A stretch of 5,075 bases of DNA from NCBI GenBank assembly GCA_018903055.1, contig JAHIPW010000048.1, positions 1 to 5,075 on the forward strand, given 5' to 3'. Position numbers and translations under genes: made by a program. The DNA is from DRGV01 sp018903055 [NCBI: bacterium] (GTDB lineage Bacteria; UBP18; UBA7526). The notes under the pieces were generated by a model that worked only from the letters and a program-made list of their open reading frames with translations, ran no database searches and was not told the DNA's origin. Of the stretch, positions 636-4,952 are shown in pieces (positions within the stretch are counted from its first letter, which is position 1; every line of letters starts with the position of its first letter).

Positions 636-1511
636 GTGAACAAAATTGGAATTATTATCAATCCCAAAAAGCCCCAAGCAAGGGAGACTTTAAAAAAACT
701 TGTTAATTATTTAAATAAGAGAAGAAAGTCGATCATCCTCGAAAAAATAAGCGCCAGGCTCATTCAACGACCCAGACTTGGAGCAAAGGATAATAGAGCC
801 TATCAAAGATGTGATCTAATCATTGCCCTGGGCGGGGATGGAACTCTTTTGAGGGCAGTAAGAATGCTTAAAGGAAAAGAGATTCCCATTCTGGGAGTAA
901 ACCTGGGAGGGTTGGGTTTTCTTACTGAGGTTACTTTGGGTGAACTTTACAAAACCCTAAGCGACGTTTTGGCGGATAGATATCGACTGGAGAAAAGGAT
1001 AGGCCTTGAGGCCACCCTCTATAGGGGGAGAAAGAGGATAGCTACCTCTACTGCCCTGAACGATTGCGTAATTACCAAGGGAGTTCTTTCCCGGCTGATC
1101 AGATTGGATGCTTTCATCGGGAAAGAGTATCTTACTACCTATGCTGCAGATGGACTCATCATTTCTACCTCTACTGGGTCTACTGCTCATTCCCTTTCTG
1201 CTGGAGGACCCATCGTCCATCCTGGTATTCCAGCCATCATCCTCACCCCTATCTGTCCCCATACCTTGAGCAACCGTCCCCTCATCATCTCTGGAGAAGA
1301 AGAGATCAGGATAAGAATTGCTTCCCCTCATCCAGACATTGCTCTTACCCTGGATGGCCAGGAAGTGATCAAATTGAAGGAGAAGGATGTCATCAGAATA
1401 AAGAAGGCTTCCTCTAAGATAGGACTCATCGTCCCTAAAAAGAAGAGCTACTATCAGGTATTAAGGAAAAAATTAAAATGGGGAGGAACCACTTCAGCAA
1501 GTAGCAAGTAA
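636..1511 (+). CDS. nadK: NAD kinase
   Basis: ATP-NAD kinase phosphorylates the 2'-hydroxyl of NAD to make NADP in the cytoplasm. The 291 residues match the usual family length (about 280-300). An N-terminal Rossmann-like part carries the signature GGDGT (66-70), with Asp68 the expected catalytic residue, followed by GVNLGGLGFLTE (87-98). The C-terminal beta-rich domain carries ALNDCVI (140-146) and the NAD-binding stretch around DGLIISTSTGSTAHS (172-186), then LSAGGPI. The more usual form of that stretch is STPTGSTAYS, so Ser179 and His185 are mild departures. The start is GTG, supported by GGAGGA just upstream. The last residues, roughly ASSK, and the TAA stop are encoded by a spacer repeat of the AAGTAAC type, so the C-terminal tail is probably not ancestral. 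It follows tlyA by three bases; the kor cluster begins 89 nt downstream. Identity is secure. Confidence 0.97.
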   Translation: MNKIGIIINPKKPQARETLKKLVNYLNKRRKSIILEKISARLIQRPRLGAKDNRAYQRCDLIIALGGDGTLLRAVRMLKGKEIPILGVNLGGLGFLTEVTLGELYKTLSDVLADRYRLEKRIGLEATLYRGRKRIATSTALNDCVITKGVLSRLIRLDAFIGKEYLTTYAADGLIISTSTGSTAHSLSAGGPIVHPGIPAIILTPICPHTLSNRPLIISGEEEIRIRIASPHPDIALTLDGQEVIKLKEKDVIRIKKASSKIGLIVPKKKSYYQVLRKKLKWGGTTSASSK

Positions 1512-1575
1512 CAAGGAACAAGTAACAATTTTTCAATGTTCATTGCTTCCGTCTCAGACGGATTCAATGTTAATT
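1497..1575 (+). repeat. AAGTAAC-type spacer repeat, copy 1, with nested palindrome
   Basis: The spacer between nadK and the ferredoxin gene contains degenerate tandem units of the form AAGTAACA (about 1499-1528), then TTCATTG and TTCAATGTTAATT (1563-1575). A second copy lies at about 3676-3735: both share AACAAGTAACAAT (here 1517-1529) and end in TTCAATGTTAATT. In this copy 17 nt (1546-1562) containing the palindrome TCCGTC-tca-GACGGA separate TTCATTG from TTCAATG; in the other copy those words are adjacent. The repeat starts inside nadK and supplies its stop codon. There is no coding potential and no U-tract after the hairpin, so a terminator is doubtful. Confidence 0.8.
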
Positions 1576-1810: not shown

Positions 1811-1839
1811 GGGAAAGTGAGAAAGTGGGAAAGTGAGAA
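1811..1839 (+). repeat. Two direct copies of a purine-rich 13-mer in the spacer
   Basis: GGGAAAGTGAGAA occurs at 1811-1823 and again at 1827-1839, a 16-nt period joined by AGT. It fills about half of the 62-nt spacer between the delta and alpha subunit genes and ends well before the alpha RBS (AAAGGAA, 1854-1860). Its sequence is unrelated to the other spacer repeats. Confidence 0.75.
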
Positions 1840-1866: not shown

Positions 1867-2949
1867 ATGGCTAAGAGACTGATGATGGGGAATGAGGCCA
1901 TTGGGGAAGGAGCAATTCAAGCCGGATGTCGTTTCTATGCCGGTTATCCCATTACCCCCCAAAATGAACTTACTGCCTATATGGCGAAGAGAATGCCTGA
2001 GGTGAACGGAGTCTTCATCCAATCGGAATCGGAATTGGCAGCCATTAGTATGCTCTATGGTGCCTCTTTAGTTGGGGCACGGACCATGACCTCCTCTTCC
2101 TCCCCTGGAATAAGTCTCATGCAGGAGGGGATTTCCTATATGGCCGGGGCAGAGCTTCCCTGCGTCATCGCCAATATCCAAAGGGGTGGCCCGGGATTGG
2201 GAAACATCTCCGGGGCCCAGGGAGACTATTTTCAGGCAACAAGGGGGGGAGGGCACGGAGACTATCGCACCCTGGTTTTGGCTCCTCACTCCGTTCAGGA
2301 GATGTTCCACCTTACCAGAGAGGCCTTTGATTTAGCGGATAGATATCGAAGCCCAGTCATTATTTTAGGGGATGGGGTTTTGGGCCAGATGATGGAGCCC
2401 ATGGAAATCCAGCCGCCGAAGGCGAGCCTCGCCAAAGGCGGGGATCCAGAATCCAGGATCCAGGATCCAGCAAAGAAGGATTGGATACTAGATGGATGTC
2501 AGGGAAGAGAGCCGAGAAGCATAAAGTCTCTCATCCTGGGAGAGAATTCGTTGGAGAAACATAATGAGAGATTGGCCGAGAAGTATAAAGAGATGGAGAA
2601 GGAAATAAGATATGAGGCTGTAGAAATAGAGGACGCCCAAGCAATCCTGGTGGCCTTTGGGACCTCAGCCAGAATATGTAAAGAGGCCATGCATCGTGCA
2701 AGGAAAGAGGGATTAAAAGTGGGGCTCATAAGACCCATTACTCTCTTTCCTTTCCCCAAAGAGATCATTTTAGAAAATGCTCCGAGAATAAAGGGATATC
2801 TCACCGTAGAGATGAATCTGGGACAGATGGTAGAGGATGTAAGATTAGCAGTAAGTGGAAGATGTCCGGTCCATTTCTATGGTCGACCAGCAGGTGGTTT
2901 CCCAGAAGTAGAAATAATAATTGAGAAAATAAAGGAGATTCTGGGGTGA
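1867..2949 (+). CDS. korA: 2-oxoacid:ferredoxin oxidoreductase, alpha subunit (VorB/KorA type)
   Basis: The 360-residue alpha subunit forms the active site together with the TPP-binding beta subunit, in oxidative decarboxylation of a 2-oxoacid to acyl-CoA with ferredoxin as acceptor, or the reverse. The N-terminal pyrimidine-binding domain (about 1-180) contains GYPITPQNE (26-34), [26 protein letters not shown] (74-88), RGGPGLGNI and GGGHGDYR. The C-terminal domain (about 225-360) contains [26 protein letters not shown] and [10 protein letters not shown]. The wording resembles proteins annotated VorB (branched-chain 2-oxoacid) as well as KorA (2-oxoglutarate), so the substrate stays open. The ATG start has AAAGGAA 6 nt upstream. 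Oddity: residues about 183-202, in the linker between the domains, are encoded by a palindrome plus four tandem heptamers (2413-2470), giving a low-complexity insertion. The stop overlaps the beta-subunit start by 4 nt. The family is secure; the substrate is not. Confidence 0.94.
2413..2470 (+). repeat. In-frame palindrome plus tandem heptamer repeat inside the alpha-subunit gene
   Basis: A palindrome at 2413-2441 has arms CCGCCgaaGGCGAG and CTCGCCaaaGGCGG, which pair apart from a 3-nt internal mismatch. It is followed directly by four heptamers: GATCCAG (2443-2449), AATCCAG (2450-2456), GATCCAG (2457-2463) and GATCCAG (2464-2470). The block keeps the reading frame and encodes about residues 183-202, between MEIQ and KKDWILDG. 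It resembles the spacer repeats elsewhere in the window in combining a small palindrome with short tandem units. The coding frame on both sides aligns with normal family motifs, so the gene is not broken. Confidence 0.8.
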
Positions 2950-3695
2950 AGAAAATATTGGGGCGACCGGAGAGTATGCAGGATGTTTCCACTATCTATT
3001 GTCCGGGATGTGGCCATGGCATCGTTCATAGGTTGGTCTGCGAGGTAATCGATGAGTTGGGAATAAGAGAAAAGACCATTGCTGTGGCACCAGTAGGCTG
3101 CGCTGTCCTTGCCTACCAGTACTGGAAATTTGATACCACCGAAGCTGCCCATGGCCGGCCTCCGGCAGTGGCTACGGGAATAAAGAGGATTTTACCGGAC
3201 AGGATAGTCTTCACCTATCAGGGGGATGGAGACCTGGCAGCTATTGGGACAGCAGAGACAGTCCATGCTGCCAATCGGGGAGAGAATATCACCACAATCT
3301 TTGTCAATAATGCGGTCTATGGTATGACTGGAGGGCAGATGGCCCCTACCACATTGATTGGCCAGAAGACCTTAACCACTCCTTCTGGCCGAGATCCAAA
3401 GTTGGCTGGCTATCCCATAAAGATTTCCGAGGCCCTGGCTCAACTCGATGGAACAACCTATATTGAAAGGGTGGCGGTCAATAGCCCCAAGAACATATTG
3501 AAAGCAAAGAAGGCCATAAAGAAAGCATTCCAGGTTCAACTCGAGAATAGGGGGTTCTCTTTAGTGGAGGTATTATCTATGTGCCCCACTGCCTGGTGGG
3601 TAAGCCCCGAAGAGGCCCTCAAGTGGGTAGAGGAGAGGATGCTCCCAGAATTCCCCTTGGGAGTCATCAAAGATAAAGTAACAAGTAACAAGTAA
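2946..3695 (+). CDS. korB: 2-oxoacid:ferredoxin oxidoreductase, beta subunit (TPP-binding)
   Basis: The 249-residue beta subunit binds thiamine pyrophosphate and the proximal [4Fe-4S] cluster. Visible motifs are CPGCGHG with Cys19 and Cys22, PVGC with Cys52, the TPP/Mg motif [10 protein letters not shown] (93-102) ending at Asn121-Asn122, [12 protein letters not shown] (125-136), and a late Cys213 in SMCPT. Cys19, Cys22, Cys52 and Cys213 are the expected four cluster ligands. The GTG start overlaps the alpha stop as GTGA (2946-2949), with AAAGGAG at 2931-2937, which indicates translational coupling and a stoichiometric complex. The protein is of ordinary length for the family. The last five residues, VTSNK, and the TAA stop are encoded by the first units of a spacer repeat, so the original C-terminus was probably near IKDK. 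Cytoplasmic, with no membrane segment. The subunit family is secure; KOR versus VOR specificity is open. Confidence 0.95.
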
Positions 3696-3735
3696 CAATG
3701 AAAAATTGTTCATTGTTCATTGTTCAATGTTAATT
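3676..3735 (+). repeat. AAGTAAC-type spacer repeat, copy 2
   Basis: Tandem AGTAACA units (3677-3697) run through the end of the beta-subunit gene and provide its TAA stop at 3693-3695. They are followed by TTGTTCATTGTTCATTG and TTCAATGTTAATT (3723-3735). AACAATGAA (3694-3702) and TTCATTGTT (3709-3717) form a perfect 9-bp AT-rich inverted repeat with a 6-nt loop. It shares both end words with copy 1 at 1497-1575. The weak AT stem and lack of a U-tract argue against a terminator, and the gamma gene with its own RBS follows. Confidence 0.8.
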
Positions 3736-3758
3736 GATATCGCCTTACAGGAGATAAT

Positions 3759-4773: not shown

Positions 4774-4810
4774 GATTAACCCCGCCCCTGCGTGCAGGAG
4801 CGGGGTAATC
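4774..4810 (+). repeat. GC-rich hairpin flanked by CACAGATT direct repeats
   Basis: GATTA-a-CCCCGC-c-CCTG (4774-4790) pairs with CAGG-a-GCGGGG-TAATC (4795-4810) around a CGTG loop, with one bulge and one mismatch. CACAGATT occurs on both sides (4770-4777 and 4810-4817). It lies 27 nt after the acetyltransferase stop. The stem is strong enough for a terminator, but the following bases are TAATCACAGATTGTTT rather than a T-run, so termination is uncertain. With the predicted promoter, the stem would sit at the very 5' end of the downstream transcript. Confidence 0.75.
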
Positions 4811-4821
4811 ACAGATTGTTT

Positions 4822-4894
4822 AGTTCGGAGTTAGGAGTTTGGAGTTAGGAGTCTCCGAACACCGAACTCAAGGCCGAAGGCCGTGCTCCGAACT
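4822..4894 (+). repeat. Inverted and direct repeat block in the leader of the membrane gene
   Basis: The block is bounded by the perfect 9-bp inverted repeat AGTTCGGAG (4822-4830) and CTCCGAACT (4886-4894). Inside are two copies of GGAGTTAGGAGT (4827-4838 and 4841-4852), two more complements of the left arm (CTCCGAAC at 4853-4860 and CCGAACT at 4862-4868) and a small palindrome GGCCGAAGGCC (4872-4882). I see no open reading frame of note in it. It could be a dispersed repeat unit or a structured leader. Confidence 0.7.
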
Positions 4895-4952
4895 GCAGAA
4901 TCCGTGTTAGATATGCATTCACAATAGGCAAAGCAAAAAATCCGTGTATAGA

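What the first reader, a model, noticed from the sequence alone, without database searches (positions are those of the whole stretch)
2413..2470. Palindrome plus four tandem heptamers inserted in frame in the 2-oxoacid oxidoreductase alpha subunit
The sequence shows a 29-nt palindrome followed by four GATCCAG-type heptamers, translated as about residues 183-202 in the linker between the two conserved domains. Flanking family motifs are intact. In-frame palindromic elements in protein genes are known from Rickettsia (RPE); a comparable element in an anaerobe's core metabolic enzyme would be an example of repeat DNA becoming protein sequence. That it is an insertion is inferred from my memory of the family's linker.
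Basis: partly seen in the sequence, partly recalled or inferred. Interest (0 to 1): 0.62.

Follow-up and report, generated by a model that had tools for sequence, protein, structure and literature searches.

The report
Repeat words rewriting enzyme loops
A short palindrome sits inside a run of seven-letter DNA repeats that is translated as part of an enzyme's floppy linker; similar repeats are frequent through the sampled genome of this little-known bacterium, inside other core enzymes too, and related species carry different repeat words at the same spot.

Summary
Window 2413-2441 is a 29-nt palindrome and 2443-2470 holds four GATCCAG-type heptamers, in frame in a 2-oxoacid:ferredoxin oxidoreductase alpha subunit. 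A further heptamer (2406-2412) lies left of the palindrome, so the palindrome sits inside an array. Against 91 homologues outside the family the net insertion is about 10 residues (the palindrome); the heptamers occupy a linker of nearly native length.

Family alleles carry different words at this site: three words among four alleles that are 95-96% identical to each other outside it. Heptamer and octamer arrays are enriched in sampled stretches and lie in frame in PurH, DapF, AhcY, CobT, RibD and others. A 54-nt, 98% identical copy lies in Ddl, read in another frame.

Best reading: dispersed, probably neutral or selfish repeat DNA tolerated in flexible loops. The palindrome behaves like a Rickettsia palindromic element but is far shorter and nested. 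Y1_Tnp and RVT_1 were not found in 6 family genomes. How words change is unexplained. New variant of a known kind.

The parts
1867..2949 (+). 2-oxoacid:ferredoxin oxidoreductase alpha subunit (KorA/VorB type), 360 aa, host gene
   Evidence: Pfam POR_N 14-246, E 3.3e-53, and PFOR_II 257-348, E 7.9e-21; 54-67% identity to 41 homologues of other lineages
2406..2412 (+). heptamer AATCCAG, left of the palindrome
   Evidence: sequence; the array begins at the same position in relatives G002 and G003:C3
2413..2442 (+). 30-nt palindromic insert (29-nt palindrome plus G), codons 183-192, [10 protein letters not shown]
   Evidence: inverted repeat; absent from four family alleles that have an array; core at 9 places in the genome
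2443..2470 (+). four GATCCAG-type heptamers
   Evidence: TRF 2442-2470, period 7
2413..2472 (+). residues 183-202, predicted flexible linker between the two domains
   Evidence: AlphaFold2 model, mean pLDDT 89.2; the only segment of 3 or more residues under 50 is 185-200
1498..1528 (+). (CAAGTAA)n array that holds the stop codon of the preceding gene (636-1511)
   Evidence: TRF; ORF end
1813..1839 (+). octamer array (GAAAGTGA)n between genes
   Evidence: TRF
3676..3736 (+). two heptamer arrays, AAGTAAC (3676-3698) then ATTGTTC (3705-3736); the first holds the stop codon of the ORF 2946-3695
   Evidence: TRF; ORF end
4779..4896 (.). intergenic composite: palindrome 4779-4806, AGTTAGG array 4822-4852, then inverted heptamers with a nested GGCCGAAGGCC at 4872-4882; missing at the anchored site in G003
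   Evidence: sequence, TRF, empty-site comparison with flanks 84% and 74% identical

Best explanation
The feature is one member of a genome-wide population of short heptamer and octamer arrays, some with nested GC-rich palindromes, in a bacterial lineage held here as one family of six genomes. The array occupies a predicted flexible linker of the oxidoreductase. It is tolerated because its sense-strand word has no stop codon in any frame (a 7-nt word cycles through all frames), because the net length stays a multiple of three, and because the site is a loop. The 30-nt palindrome is a later insertion into such an array in the window's lineage, and is shared, with flanking units, as a 54-nt, 98% identical block with the array in ddl. 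Shown: presence, recurrence, in-frame coding, nesting, different words at the same site in relatives, low model confidence at the linker. Inferred: that the block moved from one array to another by recombination or gene conversion using the shared word as homology, that words also drift by slippage and homogenisation, and that the DNA is neutral or selfish for the cell.
For: Same linker site, family alleles: GGATCCA (window, G002, G003:C3), GTCCAAA (G004, G005), ACCGTTA (G003:C16); the four alleles of genus g3 are 95-96% identical to each other outside the array. Palindrome present in the window and, with another sequence, in G005; absent in four other family alleles. A 54-nt copy at 98% identity lies in ddl of the same genome in another frame, and the ddl of same-genus G001 has the array without the palindrome and is 10 residues shorter there. 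PurH (4 of 6 genomes) has four array sites and DapF (5 of 6) two, with words and extra inserts differing between species. Words recur: 32 same-word pairs among 64 exact doublets in G000 against a shuffled mean of 3.8, maximum 11; coding words are found among intergenic words in 8 of 18 cases against a mean of 1.2. In-gene period-7 words are stop-free on the sense strand in 40 of 44 cases and on the antisense strand in 23 of 44; intergenic words on 71 of 122 strands. Pfam recognises all 10 host proteins that were scanned.
Against: No machinery was found: 0 of 6 family genomes has Y1_Tnp or RVT_1, but other transposases were not searched and the genomes are 53-93% complete. Array-to-array conversion can spread a block between arrays of one word, but does not explain how a site changes from GGATCCA to ACCGTTA. 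In AhcY the array keeps the native length, which simple insertion does not predict. Many anchored sites keep the same word: 23 of 55 from G003 to G004, 6 of 15 from G000 to G004, 2 of 21 from G000 to G003. Everything rests on metagenome-assembled genomes, and neutrality was not tested.
Confidence: 0.72

Rival explanations
1. A Rickettsia-type palindromic mobile element moved by an unidentified transposase inserts directly into genes; the heptamers are only its preferred target.
For: Palindrome core at 9 places in G000, control 0; alleles of the same site with and without it; in frame in two unrelated enzymes.
Against: No clear target duplication in the ddl comparison, where the unit order also differs. 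No Y1_Tnp found. Does not explain the arrays, which occur without this palindrome in four of six family alleles.
Confidence: 0.3
2. Arrays arise in place by polymerase slippage and template realignment of about 7 nt, and differ between species because each arose or was homogenised locally.
For: Periods 7, 8, 14, 16 and 21 stand out; G003:C3 and G004 korA arrays align unit by unit and share a variant unit (my reading); the proposal that 7 nt may match the stretch in contact with the polymerase, as reported in PMC4679880 (passages).
Against: Periods 10 (2.6-3.7 per 100 kb) and 12 (1.5-2.6) are also above shuffles, so 7 and 8 are not alone. Words recur within and between genomes far above composition-matched shuffles, and the korA and ddl blocks are 98% identical over 54 nt.
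Confidence: 0.35
3. The linkers are selected for: the repeats give a useful flexible spacer or a regulatory DNA or RNA site.
For: The same linker also carries tandem repeats in 2 of 76 homologues of other lineages, both labelled Elusimicrobia, with other words; the stretch folds strongly as RNA.
Against: Different words give different peptides at one site, and the same block is read in two frames in two enzymes, so the peptide is not conserved.
Confidence: 0.12
4. Assembly or binning artefact.
For: The genome is fragmented (191 contigs) and repeats break assemblies; both G003 korA copies end at contig ends.
Against: Arrays are in frame at the same sites in several separately held genomes, and the reading frames stay open.
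Confidence: 0.04

Closest known systems
Rickettsia palindromic elements (RPE)
   Same: Palindromic repeat DNA, intergenic and in frame inside conserved protein genes; tolerated (passages of PMC2229807).
   Different: RPE are given there as 105-146 bp with terminal inverted repeats; here a 30-nt palindrome nested in a heptamer array.
Heptanucleotide elements of Geobacter metallireducens
   Same: Four tandem heptamers (consensus GGACCGG) at 49 places within and between genes (passages of PMC2700814).
   Different: One word in that family; here many words, differing between relatives at orthologous sites, with nested palindromes.
TAACTGA repeats of marine Beggiatoaceae
   Same: 169 sets of heptamer direct repeats in one genome, mostly intergenic (passages and section 15 of PMC4679880).
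   Different: One word; inside genes mainly at protein ends, not in the middle of conserved enzymes.
Tandem repeats of Borg elements
   Same: Fast-changing repeats that make new disordered protein regions (title and passages of PMC9879509).
   Different: Borg repeats in ORFs have unit lengths divisible by three and are virtually all unique within a genome; here units of 7 and 8 nt with shared words.
REP/RAYT systems
   Same: Short dispersed palindromes (abstract start of PMC3733652; the tie to a Y1 transposase is recalled).
   Different: No Y1_Tnp gene found in 6 family genomes; found inside genes.

Membership tests
Rickettsia palindromic element | palindromic repeat in frame inside conserved protein genes | tested here: met
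   korA and ddl of the same genome
Rickettsia palindromic element | element of about 105-146 bp with terminal inverted repeats | tested here: not met
   30-nt palindrome; shared block 54 nt
REP/RAYT | Y1 HUH transposase (PF01797) in the genome | tested here: not met
   0 of 6 family genomes; 5 of 14 control genomes ring; genomes incomplete
MITE | target-site duplication | tested here: inconclusive
   ddl with the palindrome against the same-genus allele without it: no clear duplication, unit order differs
Bacterial heptanucleotide repeat arrays | period-7 arrays far above chance across the genome | tested here: met
   18.4, 10.7 and 7.4 per 100 kb in stretches of G000, G003, G004; 0 at period 7 in shuffles; 1.7 in 76 control loci and 0 in 25 others
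Bacterial heptanucleotide repeat arrays | one dominant repeat word (as described for Beggiatoaceae) | tested here: not met
   45 distinct words among 64 exact doublets in G000
Borg-type protein-coding tandem repeats | unit length divisible by three inside ORFs | tested here: not met
   units of 7, 8, 14 and 16 nt inside ORFs, besides some of 21

The most novel reading that the evidence does not exclude
Genomes of this lineage have a process that overwrites short stretches of DNA, coding ones included, with tandem copies of words from a shared lexicon of heptamers while keeping the length, so that sites in core enzymes change their word between close relatives without exchange of the flanks and without a recognised REP transposase or reverse transcriptase. 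AhcY, where the array stands in place of about 12 native residues with no change of length, is the clearest case.
Probability: 0.3. Interest if true: 0.85.

Novelty: new variant of a known kind. Interest (0 to 1): 0.64.

Why it matters
It shows repeat DNA turning into protein sequence over and over in core enzymes, with the repeat word differing between close relatives at the same site. That gives natural series of filled, unfilled and rewritten alleles for asking how short repeats without an obvious transposase spread, how proteins absorb them, and whether length-preserving rewriting by tandem words is a real mutational process.

Tried and rejected
Considered and set aside: one fixed composite of palindrome plus heptamers (four of six family alleles have an array alone); net insertion of all 20 residues; REP/RAYT; copying by a reverse transcriptase (no RVT_1 in 6 genomes); a conserved useful peptide (different frames and words). 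The first DNA alignment mixed strands and was replaced by the strand-correct comparison. Six paper searches of one open-access library listed nothing whose title or abstract start describes heptamer words changing at orthologous coding sites or palindromes nested in such arrays; the listings were capped and I opened four papers, by passages, and one section of one of them. The classifier is crude: it says 'same word' on any shared 10-mer or doubled word, and 'no array' includes worn arrays. The inverted-copy test was modest: 22 of 199 intergenic arrays have an inverted copy of 10 nt or more within 150 bp, against 5 for a shuffle.

Against the reading: AhcY of G003 and G004 is a mosaic, with divergent patches at about 300-480 and 900-1020 nt in an otherwise near-identical gene. 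The difference there may be allele exchange rather than local rewriting, and four of six family genomes have an array, so G004 and G005 could have lost it.

Full report
The finding. The window is the whole of contig C26 (5075 bases) of a genome of 1.085 Mb in 191 contigs, 85% complete. The held collection has six genomes of its lineage, all in one family, even when the whole phylum is asked for. Four close homologues found by name are titled only 'MAG: bacterium isolate CSMAG'; that this series is from cold seeps is recalled. The gene at 1867-2949 is the alpha subunit of a 2-oxoacid:ferredoxin oxidoreductase. At 2413-2441 is a 29-nt palindrome and at 2443-2470 four GATCCAG-type heptamers; another heptamer, AATCCAG, precedes the palindrome at 2406-2412. 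The palindrome plus one G is 30 nt, codons 183-192.

What is inserted. Between conserved E177 and W206 there are 15-22 residues, median 16, in the 91; 18, 18, 18 and 20 in family alleles with an array only; 28 in the window and in G005, both with a palindrome. So the palindrome is the net insertion of about 10 residues, and the array fills a linker of about native length. AlphaFold2, from 42 sequences, gives mean pLDDT 89.2; the only segment of 3 or more residues below 50 is 185-200. Surface exposure as such was not computed.

The same site in relatives. Read strand-correctly, all five other family alleles that cover the linker have a heptamer array: GGATCCA in G002 and G003:C3, GTCCAAA in G004 and G005, ACCGTTA in G003:C16. 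G005 has its own palindrome of other sequence inside the array. Outside the array the four genus-g3 alleles are 95-96% identical to each other (518 of 538 for the two G003 copies); the window is 81-84% identical to the others. The G003:C3 and G004 arrays align unit by unit and share a variant unit, so some word changes may be drift with homogenisation; I see no such match for ACCGTTA. The two G003 copies both end at contig ends, so they may be strain variants or two loci. G001 is not informative here (residues 1-65 only).

Genome samples. At TRF score 45 or more, period-7 arrays number 21 in 114 kb of G000, 29 in 271 kb of G003 and 14 in 188 kb of G004, that is 18.4, 10.7 and 7.4 per 100 kb, against 8 in 485 kb (1.7) of 76 loci of other lineages, 0 in 97 kb of 25 further held loci, and 0 in shuffles. 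Periods 8, 14, 16 and 21 are also high; periods 10 (2.6-3.7 per 100 kb) and 12 (1.5-2.6) are raised too. The controls are loci around one gene, so they are not a perfect match. Arrays of period 7, 8, 14, 16 or 21 in G000 number 49: 28 intergenic, 11 inside ORFs, 10 at ORF edges; in G003 86: 48, 20, 18; in G004 53: 34, 10, 9; coding fraction 85-90%. ORFs were called by length only, and some period-21 cases look like ordinary protein repeats. Within the window two ORFs end in a stop codon that lies in an array.

A shared lexicon. Among exact heptamer doublets G000 has 64 with 45 distinct words and 32 same-word pairs (shuffled words: mean 3.8, maximum 11); G003 185 doublets and 283 pairs (mean 35.4, maximum 60); G004 105 doublets and 96 pairs (mean 11.6, maximum 23); between genomes the excess over the mean is 8- to 10-fold. 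Words inside genes are found among intergenic words in 8 of 18, 23 of 72 and 14 of 41 cases (null means 1.2, 7.5, 4.1). So many words are copied or inherited rather than made afresh at each site. Doublets include two-copy cases, some of which must be chance.

Other enzymes. PurH, matched in 4 of 6 family genomes, has four such sites in the alignment. At site 2 G003 has an AAAATGC array, G004 the same with 21 extra residues inside it, G000 a TCGGTAA array and G002 none; at site 3 G003 and G000 have extra residues inside the repeats and G002 and G004 do not. DapF, matched in 5 of 6, has two sites; at site 2 TRF gives AAATCAA in G004, ATTTTTG in G005 and CGAAACC in G000, which also has a long insert beside it; the G003 peptide is of the AAAATGC type (word inferred from the peptide), and the G002 stretch reads partly N. 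AhcY has ACCGTTC in G000, G002 and G003, a GATC-containing array in G001, and native-like sequence in G004 and G005; the stretch has the same length in the 6 family proteins and 19 of 21 others, the remaining two being 2 residues shorter, and the best solved homologue aligns without a gap. Ten host proteins given to Pfam are all recognised: Ddl and nine of the 72 ORFs with internal arrays at score 40 counted. Of the 72, 40 had an orthologue at 55% or more in another sample.

The copy in ddl. The korA stretch 2405-2475 finds a 54-nt block at 98% identity at G000:C70:5271-5324, inside D-alanine-D-alanine ligase, in another reading frame ([20 protein letters not shown] against [20 protein letters not shown]). 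Three further copies at 89-91% lie in G001. G001 ddl has the GATCCAG array without palindrome and 10 residues fewer; G002 has a GATCCAG array; G003 and G004 have GGGTCAA/GGGTTAA-type arrays. The unit order GATCCAG-AATCCAG after the palindrome is shared by korA and ddl of G000; AATCCAG as an inner unit is also in G001 ddl but not in korA of G002 or G003:C3. This fits transfer from ddl to korA, as a weak inference. The difference in ddl is not a clean insertion into the G001 allele, because the unit order differs; the net change is 30 nt.

Turnover. For arrays whose two flanks anchor in another sample, a crude classifier gives same word / different array / no array: G003 to G004 23 / 12 / 20 of 55; G000 to G003 2 / 12 / 7 of 21; G000 to G004 6 / 7 / 2 of 15. 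Seventeen rows, two sites listed twice, show a shorter or empty site in the other genome, among them the composite at window 4779-4896.

Constraint. In-gene period-7 words are stop-free on the sense strand in 40 of 44 cases and on the antisense strand in 23 of 44. Intergenic words are stop-free on 71 of 122 strands, shuffled words in 58%. In two genes the alleles of G003 and G004 differ by exactly 21 nt, the length of three heptamers.

Mechanism. Shown: dispersal of words and of one block, nesting, in-frame presence, different words at the same site. Inferred: arrays of one word act as homology for conversion, which carries the palindrome along; slippage changes unit number. Not explained: replacement of one word by another. 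No Y1_Tnp and no RVT_1 in 6 genomes; other transposases were not searched.

Known relatives. Heptamer arrays are known in Beggiatoaceae (PMC4679880: passages and section 15) and in Geobacter metallireducens, there also inside genes (PMC2700814: passages). Borg repeats make disordered regions, with units divisible by three in ORFs (PMC9879509: passages). RPE are in-frame palindromic elements of 105-146 bp (PMC2229807: passages). The present case combines such features with many words and different words at orthologous coding sites; I did not find that described in the listings.

Verdict. Real, and wider than the single element suggested: a new variant of known repeat kinds, with one open question, how the words are replaced.

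Noticed in passing
L037:3541-3575 and L045:3539-3570: Two homologues labelled Elusimicrobia also have tandem repeats in the same linker (CCATCAGCCAATAG, period 14, and AAATTTC, period 7): 2 of 76 non-family genes.
   Followed up: partly
L037:3894-3922: A second array, octamer TCACTCAA, inside the same oxidoreductase gene of L037 (codons 299-308).
   Followed up: no
L043, L060, L059, L094, L078: Loci of other lineages also hold heptamer or octamer arrays, so the habit is not confined to this family.
   Followed up: no
L149:2-952 and L031:837-1532 (G003:C16 and C3): One assembled genome holds two copies of the gene, each cut by a contig end, 96% identical outside the array but with different words.
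   Followed up: partly
L240:11826-13082 against L273:2-1213: AhcY of G003 and G004 is near-identical except for two divergent patches, one around the array: a mosaic gene.
   Followed up: partly
L117:15328-18009: A long ORF (893 aa) holds an octamer array GGCAGACG and a heptamer array CAGATAT in frame.
   Followed up: no
L264:8965-9001 against L237: At one intergenic site empty in the other genome the filled allele shows TGGGCAT on both sides of the composite, a possible 7-nt target duplication; I did not test the other sites for it.
   Followed up: no
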